Shown piece by piece: positions 1 through 7,284 of a DNA stretch of 34,751 nt. Origin of the DNA: Bdellovibrionales bacterium GWB1_55_8. GTDB lineage: Bacteria > Bdellovibrionota > UBA1018. The stretch lies in contig MEPR01000089.1 in assembly GCA_001769835.1 (NCBI GenBank), positions 1 through 34,751 on the forward strand, written 5' to 3'. Every line of letters begins with the position of its first letter. Positions within the stretch are counted from its first letter, which is position 1. Both the position numbers and the translations under genes were made by a program. A model generated the notes under the pieces. It searched no databases, was not told where the DNA came from, and saw only the letters and a list, made by a program, of their open reading frames with translations.

Positions 1-2
1 CA

Positions 3-1478
3 ATGATCAGATCAGCGCTTCTATTTCTTGTTGTATCGTACTGCCTCATTAATGTGGGATGCAGTCGTGTTAACCAGTCCAGTGTTCAAATATGGGTGCC
101 AGGAGCTCCTTTTTCGGCGGATCCACTTCAGTCAAATTACGTGGTTCATCAAATTGTCTTTCGTTCGATTTTGGCAACCTTGATTAGTAAGCATCGAATT
201 GGCGAGTATGCGCATCTGTTGGTAGACAGCTGGCGCGTTTCGCCTGATCACCGCGAGTGGATATTTGTGCCGCGAAAAGGATTGTTGTTCGATAATGGTG
301 ACCCGATTGATGCGAAGGCAATCGTTTCGTCGTTTAAACGAATTGCCTTTGTGTCCAAGGCTGGCAAGTTCAGGCCATCGCTGTTCTCTAAGTTGGTTGG
401 AGTGGAGAATCTAAAGTCGCCAACAACCGAGTTTTCCGGAATAAGCGTCTCAAAGGACGAGAATATAGTTTTCCGATTTACTGCACCAGTTCCTGATTTG
501 CTCGAGATTATTTCTGCTAGCGCTTATGCAGTTTCACATCCCGCAAATTATGATCTTAAAACGGGTGCCTGGTTGGATCGACTTAAAGTCGTGGCAAGTG
601 GCCCTTATCGTTTGGTGGAGTGGGGCAATGAGCGGGTTACATTAAAGCGAAGAGACAACTTTAGTATTCAAGGTGGCCACGATAGGCCAATTGACAAATT
701 TGAAATTGTCTGGAGAGCGGACCAACAATCGACTTCAGATTTAAGGCTTGGGCATTCATCGTCTGCACCTCAAGTCGGCTACGAGTTTTTTGGTGGCCCT
801 GTGTCAGGTATCGCTTACGTTCGTTGCCATTCCTGGACAAATGCTGATAGGATTTGTGGTCAGAAGCTCGACCGTTTAACGCTAAGAGAGCGATTCTATT
901 CTTCTCTGAGGAGGCGCGGGTTAAGTCCGTCCGGTTCCTTTTTTCCTGATACTCGATCGCAGACTGATGTTACGTCTTTCCGAAACGATGGTGTACGAGC
1001 CAAAGGCAACGTTACGGGGTACTTTCTTCCATCTAAATCTAGTTTGAACCCATTTTTTTCCGCGTACGGAGCTGCTCTTGTCGAAGCGGGTGGAGCAATT
1101 GGCATAAGTATGTTGCCGAAAGAGATAACTCCGCAGCAAGCCGTGCGTGAGAATGCGCCGAATCTGAAGGCCTATCTAGTAGACTTCTCGGTGCGAGCAA
1201 CCGAGGTGGATTTTGGGTCCATTCAGCGGGAATTGTATAACATGTTTATCGACCCCTCTGGTTTGCAATTGCCTGATCCAGACGAAACAATTAGACGTTA
1301 TCTCCTTCGGGGCGGGTTGAGCCTCGAGTATATCAATCATAAGATCGCCGATCAGGGCGCAATTTGGCCCTTAATGCATTTCGCGCAAGGATTTTACGCA
1401 CGCAAAGGGTTGTTTGATTTTTCGTTACTTAACCCAATGGCCACGCCAATAGAGCTTGTCTGGTTGGGATTTGAATGA
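3..1478 (+). CDS. ABC-type peptide/solute-binding lipoprotein (SBP_bac_5 family)
   Basis: This is a periplasmic solute-binding protein of the oligopeptide/nickel-binding family, which normally captures a ligand for an ABC importer. The N-terminus is a lipoprotein signal: a hydrophobic stretch at residues 5-18 and a lipobox ending at Cys20. The family's early pattern is seen around residues 80-115 (LLVDSWRVSPD, then FDNGDPIDAKAIVSSF), and SGPYRLVEW lies near residue 200. At 491 residues the length is normal to slightly short. The ATG at 3 is chosen because it starts the signal peptide; only two upstream bases are visible. The stop overlaps the start of the histidine kinase gene (ATGA). No permease or ATPase gene lies downstream, so it may serve as a ligand sensor for the kinase rather than for import. 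Base composition is more AT-rich than most of the window. The family call is firm; the ligand is unknown. Confidence 0.85.
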   Translation: MIRSALLFLVVSYCLINVGCSRVNQSSVQIWVPGAPFSADPLQSNYVVHQIVFRSILATLISKHRIGEYAHLLVDSWRVSPDHREWIFVPRKGLLFDNGDPIDAKAIVSSFKRIAFVSKAGKFRPSLFSKLVGVENLKSPTTEFSGISVSKDENIVFRFTAPVPDLLEIISASAYAVSHPANYDLKTGAWLDRLKVVASGPYRLVEWGNERVTLKRRDNFSIQGGHDRPIDKFEIVWRADQQSTSDLRLGHSSSAPQVGYEFFGGPVSGIAYVRCHSWTNADRICGQKLDRLTLRERFYSSLRRRGLSPSGSFFPDTRSQTDVTSFRNDGVRAKGNVTGYFLPSKSSLNPFFSAYGAALVEAGGAIGISMLPKEITPQQAVRENAPNLKAYLVDFSVRATEVDFGSIQRELYNMFIDPSGLQLPDPDETIRRYLLRGGLSLEYINHKIADQGAIWPLMHFAQGFYARKGLFDFSLLNPMATPIELVWLGFE

Positions 1479-2638
1479 ATGGAAGTGTGATCAGATCGTT
1501 AAAAAATAGCCCCTGGAGTGTTACACTGGCGGTGATCCTTGTGCTCGGATCTACTCTGGGATACATGGGGCTTCTTCGCTCGTACTTGTCACATAGTGCA
1601 TCTCAGTTTGCTGAAAGCTTTTACTCGCAAAATTATCCGGAAATTGAGTCAGCAGATATTGCTTCGATATCTCATCGCCTTAGTCGTATCGGAAATCCGG
1701 TAAACTGGGAGTGTATCAGGGGTAGCTATTCAGGCCGCGTGTTTTTTGAGCGGAATCCGACGAATTGTCGAGAGCGCTTTTTCCGCGATATCGTTGAGGT
1801 CCGGGGAAAGGGTAACGACGGTATATCGATCATTTTTGCGGTCCGCTTGCCGGTCGTGGTCGAACACTTTGCGTTGATGTTCGTGGTCGTACATGCCGCA
1901 TTGTTTGCGCTGCTATTTCTTACCGGTCGACGTTTTGAGCGTGTTCGTACCGAGGCCGCCTTGCGGATATCTGAAATAACTTCGCAAGTGGCTCATGATA
2001 TTCGATCTCCTTTGGCAGCCCTTCAAGTCGCGTTAAGATCGGCGGAAGGATGGACCTCGGAAAGCAAAGAGCTTGTTGGATCCGCAGCGAGTCGAATTAG
2101 AAGTATTGCTGAAGATCTGTTGAGATTGGATCGGGATCGCAAGCTGCCTCCTTCAGTAGTTAGCGACTTGGGTCCGATTTTATCCGCGCGCTCGCTCGAT
2201 GTGGTGCTGCGCGATCTTTTTGAGGAGAAGCGACGCGAGTACATAGATAGGTCTGGATTGTCATTCTTTCTAGAGTTGGATTCTGATTTTGGCAGTGCAG
2301 TGACCAATATTGAAGAACATGCGTTTGCGCGAATGTTCTCTAATTTGATCAATAACGCTGTGGAGTCAATCTCTGGAGTGGGCCGTGTAGTAGTTGCGGC
2401 AAAGCAAACAGACAAGTCAGTTGACATCCAGATAGTTGATAACGGTTGTGGTATTCCGGCTGAACTCATATCAACAATTGGAAAAACACCATTTACGCGC
2501 AAGTCGAATGGAAACGGATTGGGTGCAGTGTCGGCCATGCGCACCGTTGAGAGGTGGGCTGGGTCGATAACCTGGCAACGAAATCATAGTCGTGGAATCA
2601 CAGTCACGATTTCAATTCCACGAGTTTGCTCACGGTAA
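1475..2638 (+). CDS. Membrane sensor histidine kinase
   Basis: This is a two-component sensor kinase of 387 residues. Two membrane segments (about 15-35 and 128-150) flank a periplasmic sensor region of about 90 residues that contains two cysteines (Cys80 and Cys98). No HAMP domain is evident: the second helix runs almost directly into the DHp helix, whose H-box has the phosphoacceptor His174 in VAHDIRSPLAAL. The ATPase domain follows, with an N-box (NLINNAVESI), a G1 box (VDNGCGIP) and a G2 box (NGNGLG). The start overlaps the binding-protein stop by four bases, which implies translational coupling. No response regulator lies downstream; one could lie upstream of the window. The likely arrangement is that the binding lipoprotein presents a ligand to the periplasmic loop. 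The kinase call is firm; the partner and signal are inference. Confidence 0.9.
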   Translation: MNGSVIRSLKNSPWSVTLAVILVLGSTLGYMGLLRSYLSHSASQFAESFYSQNYPEIESADIASISHRLSRIGNPVNWECIRGSYSGRVFFERNPTNCRERFFRDIVEVRGKGNDGISIIFAVRLPVVVEHFALMFVVVHAALFALLFLTGRRFERVRTEAALRISEITSQVAHDIRSPLAALQVALRSAEGWTSESKELVGSAASRIRSIAEDLLRLDRDRKLPPSVVSDLGPILSARSLDVVLRDLFEEKRREYIDRSGLSFFLELDSDFGSAVTNIEEHAFARMFSNLINNAVESISGVGRVVVAAKQTDKSVDIQIVDNGCGIPAELISTIGKTPFTRKSNGNGLGAVSAMRTVERWAGSITWQRNHSRGITVTISIPRVCSR

Positions 2639-2642
2639 GGCC

Positions 2643-3752
2643 ATGTGGACTGAAATCGTGAGGAGTAGTTTAAGAACAGTCTTGGTGTTGGCAACCTTTA
2701 TGGCCTGTGTGGTGGATTTCGTTTTCGCCGGACTTACTGGCGACGGAATTGCGCTGACCAGCATGGAAAAGGCGAGGCATTGGAAAAGCCTACCGATTCG
2801 AATTTGCACAACTCAGGGCTTATCTGCTGAAATCGTTGCAGCTCTTGGTTCGGCCGTCGCTGTGTGGAATTCATCTTTTGGTCACATTATCTTTGAGGTC
2901 AGTTGCCAGGCAAAAAATCAGAATCATGTGGTGAGCGATCTTGCCGAGCATTCAGTGTTTTACATAACTCAGGGGTTTGGAAGAACCGGTGATCCGCTTG
3001 CTTTAGCGCGAACGTTATCGAGCTTCGATGAAGACACCGGAGAGATGCTGGATGCTGACATTCTCCTGAATGCTGATAGTTTTAATTGGAGTGAGCTCAA
3101 ATTAGACTTGAAGTCTATTCTGATTCACGAACTCGGCCACATGCTGGGATTGCAACATTTATGGATTTCTAGCTCTTCCGTTATGCACCAATATCCTTAT
3201 CAGTCTGGAATTGTGCGCCATCGGCTGGGGCTCTACGAATTGACAGCCATAAAAAGAAAATACTTTGGTGGGCAAGATCAGCAACCCCTTTATATTGATG
3301 CGTTCTTTTCTGGGAATCTGTTTCTCGGCATTCGTTATTTGCGACAGGTCGCCAATCCTGGGTCGGATCACTACTATGCTATTGGCATGATTGAGTTGAA
3401 GTTGGAGAACTATGCCTCGGCAATTGTAGCGTTTAAAACTTGCCTTGCTCATGATCCTGGAAATGTATTGGCCAGATACCGCCTTGCAGATGCCATGAAC
3501 CGATCGGAAAAAATATCAGAGGCAGAATCGGTTTTTAAGGCTCTTCTAAACGACAACCCAAGATTCTATGAGGCGTTGGCTGACTTGGCTCTTATTTATA
3601 AAAATAAGGGGAACAAGGCCGAGGCTCGTCGCCTGTTCCAAAAAACGCTCGAAGTTAATCCGGTTCATTATCCCGCGTGCTACTTTCTGCTGGAACTAAC
3701 CGGGGACAAGAAATACGAGGAATGCCTGAAAATGTTTGCTCCAACAGATTGA
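2643..3752 (+). CDS. Secreted matrixin-like zinc metalloprotease with C-terminal TPR repeats
   Basis: The predicted product is an exported zinc protease of 369 residues. An N-terminal hydrophobic signal or anchor lies at residues 10-29. The metzincin zinc site HELGHMLGLQH is at 162-172, followed by a Met-turn-like SVMH at 179-182, typical of matrixins (peptidase M10). The C-terminal part (about 230-365) reads as three tetratricopeptide-like helical pairs, with phrases such as YYAIGMIELKLENYASAIVAF and ARYRLADAMNRSEKISEAES. An in-frame GTG at 2592 exists inside the kinase gene, but the ATG at 2643 has a GGTAAGG just upstream and begins a proper signal peptide, so it is preferred. It lies four bases after the kinase stop and is probably co-transcribed with it. 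The TPR part may bind a partner or substrate. The protease fold is well supported; the target is unknown. Confidence 0.85.
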   Translation: MWTEIVRSSLRTVLVLATFMACVVDFVFAGLTGDGIALTSMEKARHWKSLPIRICTTQGLSAEIVAALGSAVAVWNSSFGHIIFEVSCQAKNQNHVVSDLAEHSVFYITQGFGRTGDPLALARTLSSFDEDTGEMLDADILLNADSFNWSELKLDLKSILIHELGHMLGLQHLWISSSSVMHQYPYQSGIVRHRLGLYELTAIKRKYFGGQDQQPLYIDAFFSGNLFLGIRYLRQVANPGSDHYYAIGMIELKLENYASAIVAFKTCLAHDPGNVLARYRLADAMNRSEKISEAESVFKALLNDNPRFYEALADLALIYKNKGNKAEARRLFQKTLEVNPVHYPACYFLLELTGDKKYEECLKMFAPTD

Positions 3753-3798
3753 GGGGGCCCACCACTTATCAACCCCCCTCAACCCCGCTATCATAGCG
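3749..3798 (+). terminator. Possible terminator hairpins after the protease gene
   Basis: A nine-base-pair inverted repeat (TTGAGGGGG at 3749-3757 and CCCCCTCAA at 3774-3782, 16-base loop) starts at the protease stop codon. A second small hairpin, CGCTA-tca-TAGCG, follows at 3786-3798, and a TTTTT run lies near 3815. There is no T-run immediately after either stem, so intrinsic termination is plausible but not certain. The position, between an operon end and a gene with its own strong ribosome site, supports it. Confidence 0.4.
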
Positions 3799-3905
3799 GC
3801 CCGGGCAAGCTCCGTTTTTCGCATAAACCGCACCGACAACTAGCTGATTTTGAACGCCAAGTTTCCATTCTTGAAGAAATCATCAAGAAGGAGGATAATT
3901 GGATA

Positions 3906-4823
3906 ATGGCGCACGTTGTACGTTTGCACTTTGCCAAATATGCACAGATTGCTTTGTCAGTCGCTGCGGCGATGATGGCGATCATCGTCCCGTCTGTGGA
4001 CGCCGCTGAGTCTTATCAAATCAACGCTTCACAAGAAGTCACGGTGGATGAACACGGCGTTTGCAAGAAAGTGACGAACAATCATAGCTCGGCCATTTTT
4101 GTTCCCACGAAAACGGATACCGAATGGGGCGCTTTCCGCACAAACGCAACGTTGATCGCGCTTGCCGATTGCGCCGCGGGCGTATGCACGCCGGGAAGCC
4201 AGGTATTCAATACAGGTGATAACCAGAACTTTGTTGTGCCGGCGAACTGCACTTCCGTTTCCGTGAAGGCGTGGGGCGCCGGTGGTGATTTCGGCGATGC
4301 AGATGGGGTTGGTGGCGACGGAGGCGGCGGCGGTTATGCGGGCGCCACTCTCACGGTAACGCCAAGTGAAACTCTGAAGGTTCGTGTGGGTTCGCCCGGC
4401 GGTGGCCAGTATGCATCCGATTATGGTTGGGGCGGAAACGGCGGCGGCTCGAGTTCCGTACTTCGCGGCACGACAGTTTTAATCGAAGCAGGCGGAGGCG
4501 GCGGAGCTGCAGCGCAGGGGCCTGGTGGAGCAGGCGGTGGCATTCGTGCCTGTGCCTCTCCGGGAAATCAAGCGGGTCAAAACGCCACTCCGGGATCGGA
4601 ATGCGGGGGCGGTGGAGCAGGGTATTGCCGTGGAAGTACCGTGGCCTGCGGGGGCGAGGGCGGCTCGAGCTATGTCCCCGCTGGTGGCGTCGAACTACCT
4701 GGCTCAGGCTCGACGCCTGGGAATGCGGGAGATCCTGATCGAGGAACAGCAGGGGATGGTTCGATCTGGATCAACATGGCTGGAACGCCTTTAGGCGCCG
4801 GTAAGGTCAAGATCAGCTGGTAA
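3906..4823 (+). CDS. Secreted glycine-rich protein (ALK/LTK-type Gly-rich domain-like)
   Basis: This is an exported protein of 305 residues. It has a signal peptide (residues 1-34, ending around VDAAE) and an N-terminal module of about 35-95 containing GVCKKVTNNHSSAIFVPTKT. From about residue 100 it is very glycine-rich, opening with FNTGDNQNFVVPANCTSVSV and KAWGAGGD. That opening matches the usual start of the bacterial 'glycine-rich' family related to the ALK/LTK glycine-rich region, whose glycine blocks pack as polyglycine II helices. Several cysteines (near 93, 115, 216, 233, 241 and 248) could form disulfides. A strong AAGGAGG at 3888-3894 fixes the ATG. The gene stands alone. A surface or adhesive role is inference from fold and export; no enzyme motif is visible. 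Confidence 0.8.
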   Translation: MAHVVRLHFAKYAQIALSVAAAMMAIIVPSVDAAESYQINASQEVTVDEHGVCKKVTNNHSSAIFVPTKTDTEWGAFRTNATLIALADCAAGVCTPGSQVFNTGDNQNFVVPANCTSVSVKAWGAGGDFGDADGVGGDGGGGGYAGATLTVTPSETLKVRVGSPGGGQYASDYGWGGNGGGSSSVLRGTTVLIEAGGGGGAAAQGPGGAGGGIRACASPGNQAGQNATPGSECGGGGAGYCRGSTVACGGEGGSSYVPAGGVELPGSGSTPGNAGDPDRGTAGDGSIWINMAGTPLGAGKVKISW

Positions 4824-4863
4824 CATCAGCTGCGCTTCACCACGTACATGAAGTCTTCCGGAC

Positions 4864-5436
4864 TTACCTCACCAACCCCAAATCATTGCACTTGATCACC
4901 ATCGTCGCCCGTCCGGCGGAGACGTAGAACTGTCTGAATTTGTAGCCGTCGCGTGCGAGGGGTTCGAAGTCAAGGACGAGTTTGACCATGAAGTCACCTT
5001 CGCTCGCTTTTTCAGAGTAGAGCTCGATGATGTGATCGCGGCCGGGATGTTCCATCAGCTTTTCGCCATCGCCGACGAAGACGAGCGCTTTTCCTGATTC
5101 GCTGAGAACGATCGAGCTGCGGTAGTTGCGAGCAAATTCTTTCACGAGTGACTTGCTCGAGACTTCAAATGTCATCTGCTCGAAGCCTTCGGGGCTGATC
5201 CGCTTTTCTACGGCGAGAGTGCAGGCCTCAGGCGACAGCCCGGCGATATCGCCAGCGTATGCATTGCCATCATAAAACAGAGCGCCAAGTCGCTCAGGAT
5301 TGTCGGCCACCATCGCAGGAGCTCTGCTGGGCGCGGCCGCGTCGTTCTTTGCCGTTCTGACAGCGAACACTGAGCAGCCCGAAGCGGCAAAGAGCGTAAA
5401 CGCCAGTGCGAGGTAACCAGTACGGATAATCATCAT
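4864..5436 (-). CDS. Putative lipoprotein of unknown function
   Basis: I do not recognise the family. The product, about 190 residues from the chosen start, begins with two basic-hydrophobic Met codons and a lipoprotein signal (GYLALAFTLFAASGC, lipobox Cys near residue 21). The mature part is mixed alpha/beta, with alternating hydrophobic strands such as SSIVLSESGKALVFVGDG and FMVKLVLDFEPL; two cysteines remain near residues 74 and 182. An in-frame ATG at 5520 would add 28 residues before the signal. A GGGGGAT run next to the ATG pair at 5433-5436 and the clean signal peptide argue for the shorter form. The gene converges with the glycine-rich protein gene, leaving a 40-base gap. The existence of the gene and its export are likely; the function is unknown. 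Confidence 0.7.
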   Translation of the reverse strand: MMIIRTGYLALAFTLFAASGCSVFAVRTAKNDAAAPSRAPAMVADNPERLGALFYDGNAYAGDIAGLSPEACTLAVEKRISPEGFEQMTFEVSSKSLVKEFARNYRSSIVLSESGKALVFVGDGEKLMEHPGRDHIIELYSEKASEGDFMVKLVLDFEPLARDGYKFRQFYVSAGRATMVIKCNDLGLVR

Positions 5437-5573
5437 CAATCCCCCATGATCATGATCGCATTGCACAAGGTTCTCTCGCAAATTGAAATAGAGAGTGGAA
5501 TTTGCTGCAGCAGTCCGCACACTTGGCGCTGCGCGCCTACAGGTTTGTGAACGTCTGAGGTAATCTCGCCGCC

Positions 5574-7197: not shown

Positions 7198-7284
7198 GCG
7201 GATGTGGTGGAATTGGTAGACACGCACGATTCAGGGTCGTGTGCCCGCAAGGGCGTGGAGGTTCAAGTCCTCTCATCCGCACCA
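7198..7284 (+). tRNA. tRNA-Leu (anticodon CAG)
   Basis: A full class II tRNA can be folded by eye. The acceptor stem is GCGGATG (7198-7204) with CATCCGC (7274-7280), followed by discriminator A and an encoded CCA (7282-7284). The anticodon stem CACGA/TCGTG encloses the loop TTCAGGG, giving anticodon CAG at 7232-7234, which reads CUG leucine codons. The long variable arm GCCCGCAAGGGC and the T-arm GTTCAAGTC are present. The 87-base length and the long variable arm are as expected for tRNA-Leu. Open reading frames crossing it are fortuitous. Confidence 0.97.

What the first reader, a model, noticed from the sequence alone, without database searches (positions are those of the whole stretch)
3..3752. 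Binding lipoprotein, histidine kinase and matrixin-TPR protease fused into one tight operon
Three genes are joined by a four-base overlap and a four-base gap: a peptide-type binding lipoprotein without its ABC transporter, a kinase without HAMP or response regulator, and an exported zinc protease with TPRs. The block is visibly more AT-rich than the rest of the window. One reading is a ligand-sensing module in which the binding protein gates the kinase and the protease is an output or produces the peptide ligand. That reading is inference; the gene order and motifs are seen.
Basis: partly seen in the sequence, partly recalled or inferred. Interest (0 to 1): 0.5.

Follow-up and report, generated by a model that had tools for sequence, protein, structure and literature searches.

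The report
Binding protein paired with sensor kinase
In a relative of predatory bacteria, a binding protein of the nutrient-uptake type stands beside a sensor kinase with no transporter in sight; related genomes hold the same pair, usually with a peptide-modifying type of enzyme (YcaO) where this one has a secreted protease, which points to a little-known family of chemical sensors.

Summary
The three genes are real: solute-binding protein (SBP) 3-1478, histidine kinase (HK) 1475-2638, matrixin-TPR protease 2643-3752. The block is AT-rich (GC 0.473; 0 of 113 background stretches as low). It starts at a contig edge, so upstream is invisible. The SBP-HK half of the reading is well supported: in 368 phylum genomes the kinase's sensor region occurs in 16 and the SBP subfamily in 20, 15 having both; the SBP is within 3 kb at 15 of 17 kinase places. 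Opp permease or ATPase matches: 0 of 25 related loci, 41 of 45 control loci. Relatives usually carry a short YcaO: of 40 further YcaO loci, 31 have both SBP and HK nearby. This assembly has no YcaO match; a protease stands there instead. Protease linkage is weak: 2 of 6 loci, the second beside an SBP-HK fusion. Best explanation: a three-component sensor with the SBP as the kinase's ligand receptor. The kind is known; the YcaO-linked family and protease variant were not found in the papers searched.

The parts
1..3752 (+). AT-rich three-gene block, probably horizontally acquired (inference)
   Evidence: GC 0.473 vs mean 0.553 (sd 0.014), 0 of 113 background stretches as low
3..1478 (+). solute-binding protein, SBP_bac_5 type, 491 aa, N-terminal hydrophobic signal with Cys20 (possible lipoprotein)
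   Evidence: Pfam SBP_bac_5 E 1.8e-23; hydrophobic 1-23; 387 bits with the subfamily HMM left-one-out vs 92 with the ABC-type HMM
1209..1211 (+). codon of Asp403, aligned by MAFFT to the OppA Asp of WCADYNEP; other residues in the rest of the subfamily
   Evidence: a pairwise alignment with OppA places another window residue there
1475..1478 (+). 4-base overlap of SBP stop and HK start
1475..2638 (+). histidine kinase, 387 aa, two hydrophobic segments, HisKA and HATPase_c, no HAMP listed, no receiver tail
1580..1852 (+). predicted extracytoplasmic sensor region, residues 36-126, with Trp78-x-Cys80 and Cys98
   Evidence: Trp78, Cys80, Cys98 invariant in 5 of 5 closest, the Cys pair in 18 of 19; AlphaFold2 block means 76-91 over residues 21-150; no PDB sequence match at E 10
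1994..1996 (+). phosphoacceptor His174
   Evidence: invariant in 19 of 19 aligned family kinases
2643..3752 (+). matrixin-type zinc protease with C-terminal TPRs and an N-terminal hydrophobic (signal-like) stretch, 369 aa
   Evidence: Pfam Peptidase_M10 2.4e-6 and TPRs; hydrophobic N-terminus
3126..3158 (+). zinc motif HELGHMLGLQH (HExxHxxGxxH), residues 162-172
   Evidence: metal-binding residues the same in the window and two close homologues, 3 of 3 rows
3372..3662 (+). TPR region

Best explanation
The block encodes a three-component-type sensor. The SBP, exported and with no transporter in sight, binds a small ligand (probably a peptide or peptide-like molecule, from its OppA-type family) and docks on the roughly 90-residue periplasmic domain of the kinase, which then changes the phosphorylation of a response regulator encoded elsewhere. 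It is a derived member of a Bdellovibrionota family whose usual form is SBP, YcaO and HK; here no YcaO is found and a secreted matrixin-TPR protease follows the kinase by 4 bases. Shown: gene anatomy, subfamily membership of SBP and kinase, recurrent linkage, absence of Opp-type transporter matches in relatives, intact kinase and zinc motifs. Inferred: SBP-kinase contact, ligand class, co-transcription, role of the protease (ligand maker or output), horizontal acquisition.
For: The three best kinase matches outside this genome, the ones that cover the sensor region, were found without using the SBP and all lie beside a homologue of this SBP. In 368 phylum genomes 15 of 16 genomes with the sensor region also have the SBP subfamily, which 20 have (hypergeometric 1.4e-21, no correction for relatedness); of the 11 genomes not used to build the sensor profile, 10 do (one of these, G055, helped to build the SBP profile). 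SBP within 3 kb at 15 of 17 kinase places, window included. Opp permease or ATPase matches: 0 of 25 loci vs 41 of 45 controls. Two SBP-HK single chains. All 19 aligned kinases keep the H, N and G-box residues; 18 of 19 keep the Cys pair.
Against: No physical interaction tested; no response regulator assigned; adjacency may reflect co-inheritance. The upstream end is cut, so a transporter or YcaO there is not strictly excluded (YcaO was sought in the whole assembly, 95.9% complete, and not found). The Cys pair is not a mark of the wider family: of 28 triad kinases that could be measured 7 have it and 21 have no Cys between the membrane segments. The two fusion proteins lack a membrane segment (G002 by hydropathy; G351 by eye) and the G002 SBP part is remote, so they are analogues rather than clear orthologues. 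The SBP model was too poor to use (pLDDT 40.7). At G055 the SBP lies on another contig. A published test of SBP-kinase pairs encoded side by side found no binding for AgtS with PA0602 or AgtB (PMC11113362).
Confidence: 0.7

Rival explanations
1. Ordinary peptide importer operon cut by the contig edge: the SBP feeds an ABC transporter upstream, and the kinase and protease are neighbours.
For: SBP_bac_5 proteins usually serve ABC importers (41 of 45 control loci); upstream is unseen.
Against: 0 of 25 related loci hold Opp-like permease or ATPase matches; the SBP subfamily scores far higher with its own profile than with an ABC-type one. Several of the 25 loci are short contigs, and four genomes contribute two loci each. 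In 40 further YcaO loci four had OppD/F-like ATPase matches, none OppB/C.
Confidence: 0.08
2. The protease is the regulated output: SBP and kinase sense a nutrient or protein-derived signal and switch on a secreted protease, as a scavenging unit.
For: A protease homologue (46%) follows an SBP-HK fusion by 13 bases in G002; here it is 4 bases downstream.
Against: The other 4 of 6 protease loci have no SBP match; one of them (G314) has an unrelated-looking kinase and response-regulator pair about 2.6 kb away, the other three no kinase match. Only 2 of the SBP-HK loci examined have the protease.
Confidence: 0.3
3. The protease makes the ligand: it releases peptides that the SBP binds by their free amino terminus, in place of a YcaO that in relatives makes or modifies a ligand without one.
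For: Both protease-linked SBPs (window, G002 fusion) have Asp at the OppA column that 6 of 7 ABC-type controls also have as Asp; only 2 of 53 other subfamily and triad SBPs do.
Against: Only two cases; a pairwise alignment of the window SBP with OppA puts another residue (still an Asp, in VDFSV) there; the role of this Asp in OppA is recalled; the 53 are not independent; no substrate is known.
Confidence: 0.2
4. Decaying or chance cluster in an acquired island, no joint function.
For: AT-rich island; protease otherwise unlinked.
Against: Three intact reading frames with their catalytic motifs, overlapping or nearly touching genes, and SBP-HK linkage over many genera.
Confidence: 0.1

Closest known systems
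CuaD-CuaS-CuaR three-component system, Ruminiclostridium cellulolyticum (PMC10384115; abstract and passages seen)
   Same: a second SBP dedicated to sensing (CuaD, distinct from the transporter's CuaA), encoded beside a two-TM histidine kinase
   Different: Family 1 sugar SBP; 627-residue kinase with HAMP and adjacent response regulator; transporter genes lie downstream of the sensing genes; no YcaO or protease mentioned in the passages seen
SBP-associated sensor kinases of Pseudomonas aeruginosa, AruS and AgtS (PMC11113362; abstract and passages seen)
   Same: kinases encoded near SBP genes; small periplasmic domain in AruS (residues 31-141)
   Different: SBP_bac_8 proteins for GABA and 5-aminovalerate; no binding reported for AgtS with PA0602 or AgtB
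OppA-type periplasmic peptide-binding proteins
   Same: SBP_bac_5; best PDB match OppA3 9pv8, E 7e-17, N-terminal part 24-223
   Different: no OppBCDF matches in 25 related loci; distinct subfamily
YcaO enzymes (E. coli YcaO; archaeal YcaO-TfuA, PMC5589413, passages seen)
   Same: the short YcaOs of related loci keep E75, E78, R79, E199, E202, R203, E290 of E. coli YcaO in 51-53 of 53; 2 of 5 scanned pass the Pfam YcaO cut-off
   Different: about 290 residues; operon with SBP and kinase; no match in this assembly

Membership tests
SBP-gated (three-component) histidine kinase system | SBP gene linked to kinase gene, conserved across genomes | tested here: met
   15 of 17 kinase places have the SBP within 3 kb
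SBP-gated (three-component) histidine kinase system | kinase with periplasmic domain between two TM segments | tested here: met
   hydropathy and AlphaFold2 prediction
SBP-gated (three-component) histidine kinase system | SBP binds the kinase domain | not testable with these tools
   no complex prediction or assay available
SBP-gated (three-component) histidine kinase system | cognate response regulator encoded with the pair | tested here: inconclusive
   none among the five ORFs of 3-5520 scanned with Pfam; upstream unseen; the genome was not searched for response regulators
ABC peptide importer operon | permease and ATPase genes beside the SBP | tested here: not met
   no Opp match in the window, 0 of 25 related loci, 41 of 45 controls; the window's upstream side cannot be tested
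Bdellovibrionota SBP-YcaO-HK module (described here) | SBP and kinase sensor region of the family | tested here: met
Bdellovibrionota SBP-YcaO-HK module (described here) | short YcaO gene | tested here: not met
   no match in this assembly
Matrixin (Peptidase_M10) | HExxHxxGxxH and Met-turn | tested here: met
   HELGHMLGLQH and SSVMH in the sequence; SVM in 3 of 3 aligned rows
Matrixin (Peptidase_M10) | proteolytic activity | not testable with these tools
   needs an assay

The most novel reading that the evidence does not exclude
Bdellovibrionota carry a family of peptide-signal receptors in which a transporter-free OppA-type protein is the receptor for a histidine kinase, and the third gene handles the signal: a YcaO that modifies a peptide (or a signalling partner) in most of the loci seen, and a secreted matrixin protease that releases an unmodified peptide in this one. 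The exchange of YcaO for protease would go with the amino-terminus-binding Asp in the SBP.
Probability: 0.2. Interest if true: 0.85.

Novelty: new variant of a known kind. Interest (0 to 1): 0.6.

Why it matters
SBP-gated kinases have been worked out one system at a time. Here one phylum, which includes predatory bacteria (recalled), shows an OppA-type SBP wired to a kinase in at least three layouts: with a YcaO, as a pair, and as a single chain. YcaO enzymes are known from peptide natural products and a few protein modifications; a YcaO placed between a receptor and its kinase has no explanation in the papers searched and gives a direct way to ask what it modifies. The single-chain fusions make the SBP-kinase link testable with one protein.

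Tried and rejected
HK core tree with 42 rows, to place the G002 fusion: unresolved, 30 of 38 inner branches open, long branches meeting, and one kinase (L098) entered twice by mistake, as module and as general row; not used. SBP structure prediction: pLDDT 40.7 from 3 sequences, not used. Fold search with the kinase model: the 50 of 565 rows shown were kinases, LOV-kinase chimeras and phytochromes, nothing on the sensor domain alone. Boundary of the island: one tRNA-Leu at 7198-7284, not at the edge; no terminator-like site in 3650-3950 and two promoter-like sites (0.3 expected); repeats at the edge were not searched. A regular expression for the SBP C-lobe (of the kind MF.S..GI.LPD) fits 17 of 21 module SBPs but only 6 of 33 triad SBPs, so it is no family mark. 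Distribution outside the phylum: not obtained (searches failed; the one genome-contig scan gave 48 loci of which three, all already known from this phylum, belong to the subfamily by score). Flank scan by Pfam showed only 25 of 75 families for 93 flanking ORFs, no ABC transporter family among those shown; the OppBCDF test with control loci was used instead. Genome searches score only the top candidates in each genome (4 to 10 for the profile searches), so counts of places are lower bounds.

Paper searches that showed no description of this system: (open-licence PMC only; listings and starts of abstracts, plus passages of the four papers named).
Full report
What is there. The window is the entire contig C89 of a 96-contig, 3.78 Mb assembly. 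The first 3752 bases hold three complete reading frames on the + strand: an SBP_bac_5 protein (3-1478), a histidine kinase (1475-2638) and a matrixin-type protease with TPRs (2643-3752). The SBP begins 2 bases from the contig end, so upstream genes are unknown. The block is AT-rich beyond anything else sampled from the genome: GC 0.473 against a mean of 0.553 (sd 0.014) in 113 stretches of the same length, none as low; GC3 of each of the three genes lies below all 173 sampled ORFs of 300 aa or more. Recent horizontal acquisition is the simplest reading (inference).

Taxon. G014 and G027 are in the window's own family. I take the phylum to be Bdellovibrionota (the phylum name is recalled).

SBP and kinase travel together. 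A search of 97 relatives with the kinase gave three matches outside this genome that cover the sensor region: G014, G022, G027. Each lies beside a homologue of the window's SBP. Over 368 phylum genomes, a profile of the kinase's N-terminal sensor region matched 17 places in 16 genomes, and a profile of the SBP subfamily (E 1e-40 or better) matched in 20 genomes; 15 genomes have both. Five of the 16 served to build the sensor profile; of the other 11, 10 have the SBP (one of these, G055, helped to build the SBP profile). The SBP lies within 3 kb at 15 of 17 kinase places, window included; in G078 another ORF lies between. The exceptions are G055, whose kinase sits beside a YcaO with the SBP on another contig, and G345, a 39-residue match that I hold to be spurious. 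The hypergeometric figure of 1.4e-21 ignores relatedness.

No transporter. E. coli OppB, OppC, OppD and OppF found nothing at E 1e-5 in 25 SBP or HK loci of this kind or in the window, but matched in 41 of 45 loci around other SBP_bac_5 genes picked up by the genome scan. Several of the 25 loci are short contigs, and four genomes contribute two loci each. In the 40 further YcaO loci described next, four had OppD/F-like ATPase matches and none OppB/C. The SBP subfamily is distinct: left-one-out HMM scores are 378-629 bits for its 15 core members against 43-92 with an ABC-type profile.

The usual third gene. At 14 of the 17 kinase places the genome has a short YcaO (about 290 residues) beside the SBP or the kinase; in G022 and G331 it lies with an SBP piece on a separate contig, and in G027 it is split. 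Pfam YcaO E-values for five of these proteins run from 7e-7 to 0.02, two of five over the curated cut-off. A profile of them matched 62 places in 52 of 368 genomes. I had 20 of these in hand, fetched 40 more and left two unexamined (G291, G111:C32). Of the 40, 35 have an SBP within three ORFs, 33 a kinase and 31 both. In these loci 33 SBP genes stand directly upstream of the YcaO on the same strand and 32 kinase genes directly downstream; 25 of 33 and 29 of 32 overlap it when ORFs are taken from the first possible start. Some of these loci are near-copies (shared protein starts), so they are not all independent. In 53 short YcaOs the equivalents of E. coli YcaO E75, E78, R79, E199, E202, R203 and E290 are kept in 51-53; that these are ATP- and magnesium-binding residues is recalled. 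This assembly has no YcaO match. The window is thus a YcaO-less relative of a conserved SBP, YcaO and HK module. G101 also has an SBP-HK pair without YcaO beside it, and keeps a separate SBP-YcaO-HK set elsewhere.

The kinase. The window's kinase and 18 related ones have two hydrophobic segments about 75-125 residues apart. In 28 of 32 triad kinases that could be measured the distance is 89-108 residues. Cys80 and Cys98 are kept in 18 of 19 of the close family, but of the 28 triad kinases only 7 have two Cys there and 21 none, so the Cys pair is not general. AlphaFold2 from 4 sequences gives the sensor region as two short helices and four strands between two long helices, block means 76-91 over residues 21-150; the whole model is poor (pTM 0.39). 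No PDB sequence matches the region at E 10. By length and sequence 13 of 19 kinases have a receiver-like tail with an acidic cluster; Pfam Response_reg is below cut-off in the two scanned that have one. The window's kinase has no tail.

The protease. It carries HELGHMLGLQH and a Met-turn, kept in two close homologues, both in G002. Homologues at E 1e-20 or better occur at 6 places in 5 of 368 genomes. Two of the 6 are the window and G002:C44, where the gene 13 bases upstream is one 710-residue chain with SBP_bac_5 (E 3.7e-9) and HATPase_c (E 3.9e-13). The other four (G002:C7, G107, G200, G314) have no SBP match in the stretches read; G314 has a kinase-like ORF (E 3e-7) next to a response-regulator-like ORF about 2.6 kb away. 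The 710-residue chain has no hydrophobic segment, and its SBP part is remote from the reference groups (3.2 and 18.9 bits; 22.7 with a triad profile). A second such chain of 740 residues exists in G351, and in G219 and G281 an SBP gene overlaps a kinase gene with no YcaO between them. So SBP_bac_5 is tied to kinases in several layouts.

Ligand. At the column of the OppA Asp in WCADYNEP, 6 of 7 ABC-type controls have Asp; of 53 other SBPs of the subfamily and the triads 2 have it; the window and the G002 fusion, the two protease-linked ones, both have it (four MAFFT modes agree). Asp403 of the window stands where its nearest relatives (G014) have Leu, with no gap from the conserved Thr400. Whether it equals the OppA Asp is less sure, since a pairwise alignment places another window residue, also an Asp, there. 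The role of that Asp in binding the peptide amino terminus is recalled. This is a lead for the ligand-maker idea, not proof.

Mechanism. Most likely the SBP is the ligand receptor of the kinase, as reported for CuaDSR (PMC10384115, abstract and passages) and for some Pseudomonas SBP-kinase pairs (PMC11113362, abstract and passages, which also reports pairs that did not bind; general background PMC9602780, passages). The response regulator and regulon are unknown. The protease may be a regulated product or may make the ligand; the evidence does not decide.

Verdict. The pair fits a known kind of sensor by layout, but its SBP class, the YcaO partner of the family and the protease variant were not found described in the papers searched.

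Noticed in passing
window 3906-4823: Glycine-rich protein (Pfam Gly_rich_2, E 2.6e-6) with a signal-like start follows the AT-rich block; GC reaches 0.685 in its repeat region.
   Followed up: no
L065:3110-12805 and L069:267-8913: Several different SBP_bac_5 genes stand in one cluster (four matches in each locus), some remote from the others, with a single kinase of this family.
   Followed up: no
L291:1492-3714 (G351): Second single-chain SBP_bac_5-histidine kinase fusion; no signal or membrane segment obvious by eye.
   Followed up: partly
L290, L292, L295: SBP genes followed closely or with overlap by a conserved protein (start like MK..SLFKHVNSSLNPYRWA); in L290 and L292 it matches the kinase core (E 9e-12, 5e-10), in L295 it is cut: a further SBP-kinase layout without YcaO between.
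   Followed up: partly
L067:6432-8915 (G027): The SBP gene of G027 is interrupted and its YcaO is split, while the kinase frame is open; G009 of the same genus also has pieces.
   Followed up: no
L190:4021-5881 (G314): A kinase-like ORF next to a response-regulator-like ORF lies about 2.6 kb from a homologue of the protease, with no SBP match.
   Followed up: no
window 7198-7284: tRNA-Leu (CAG).
   Followed up: no
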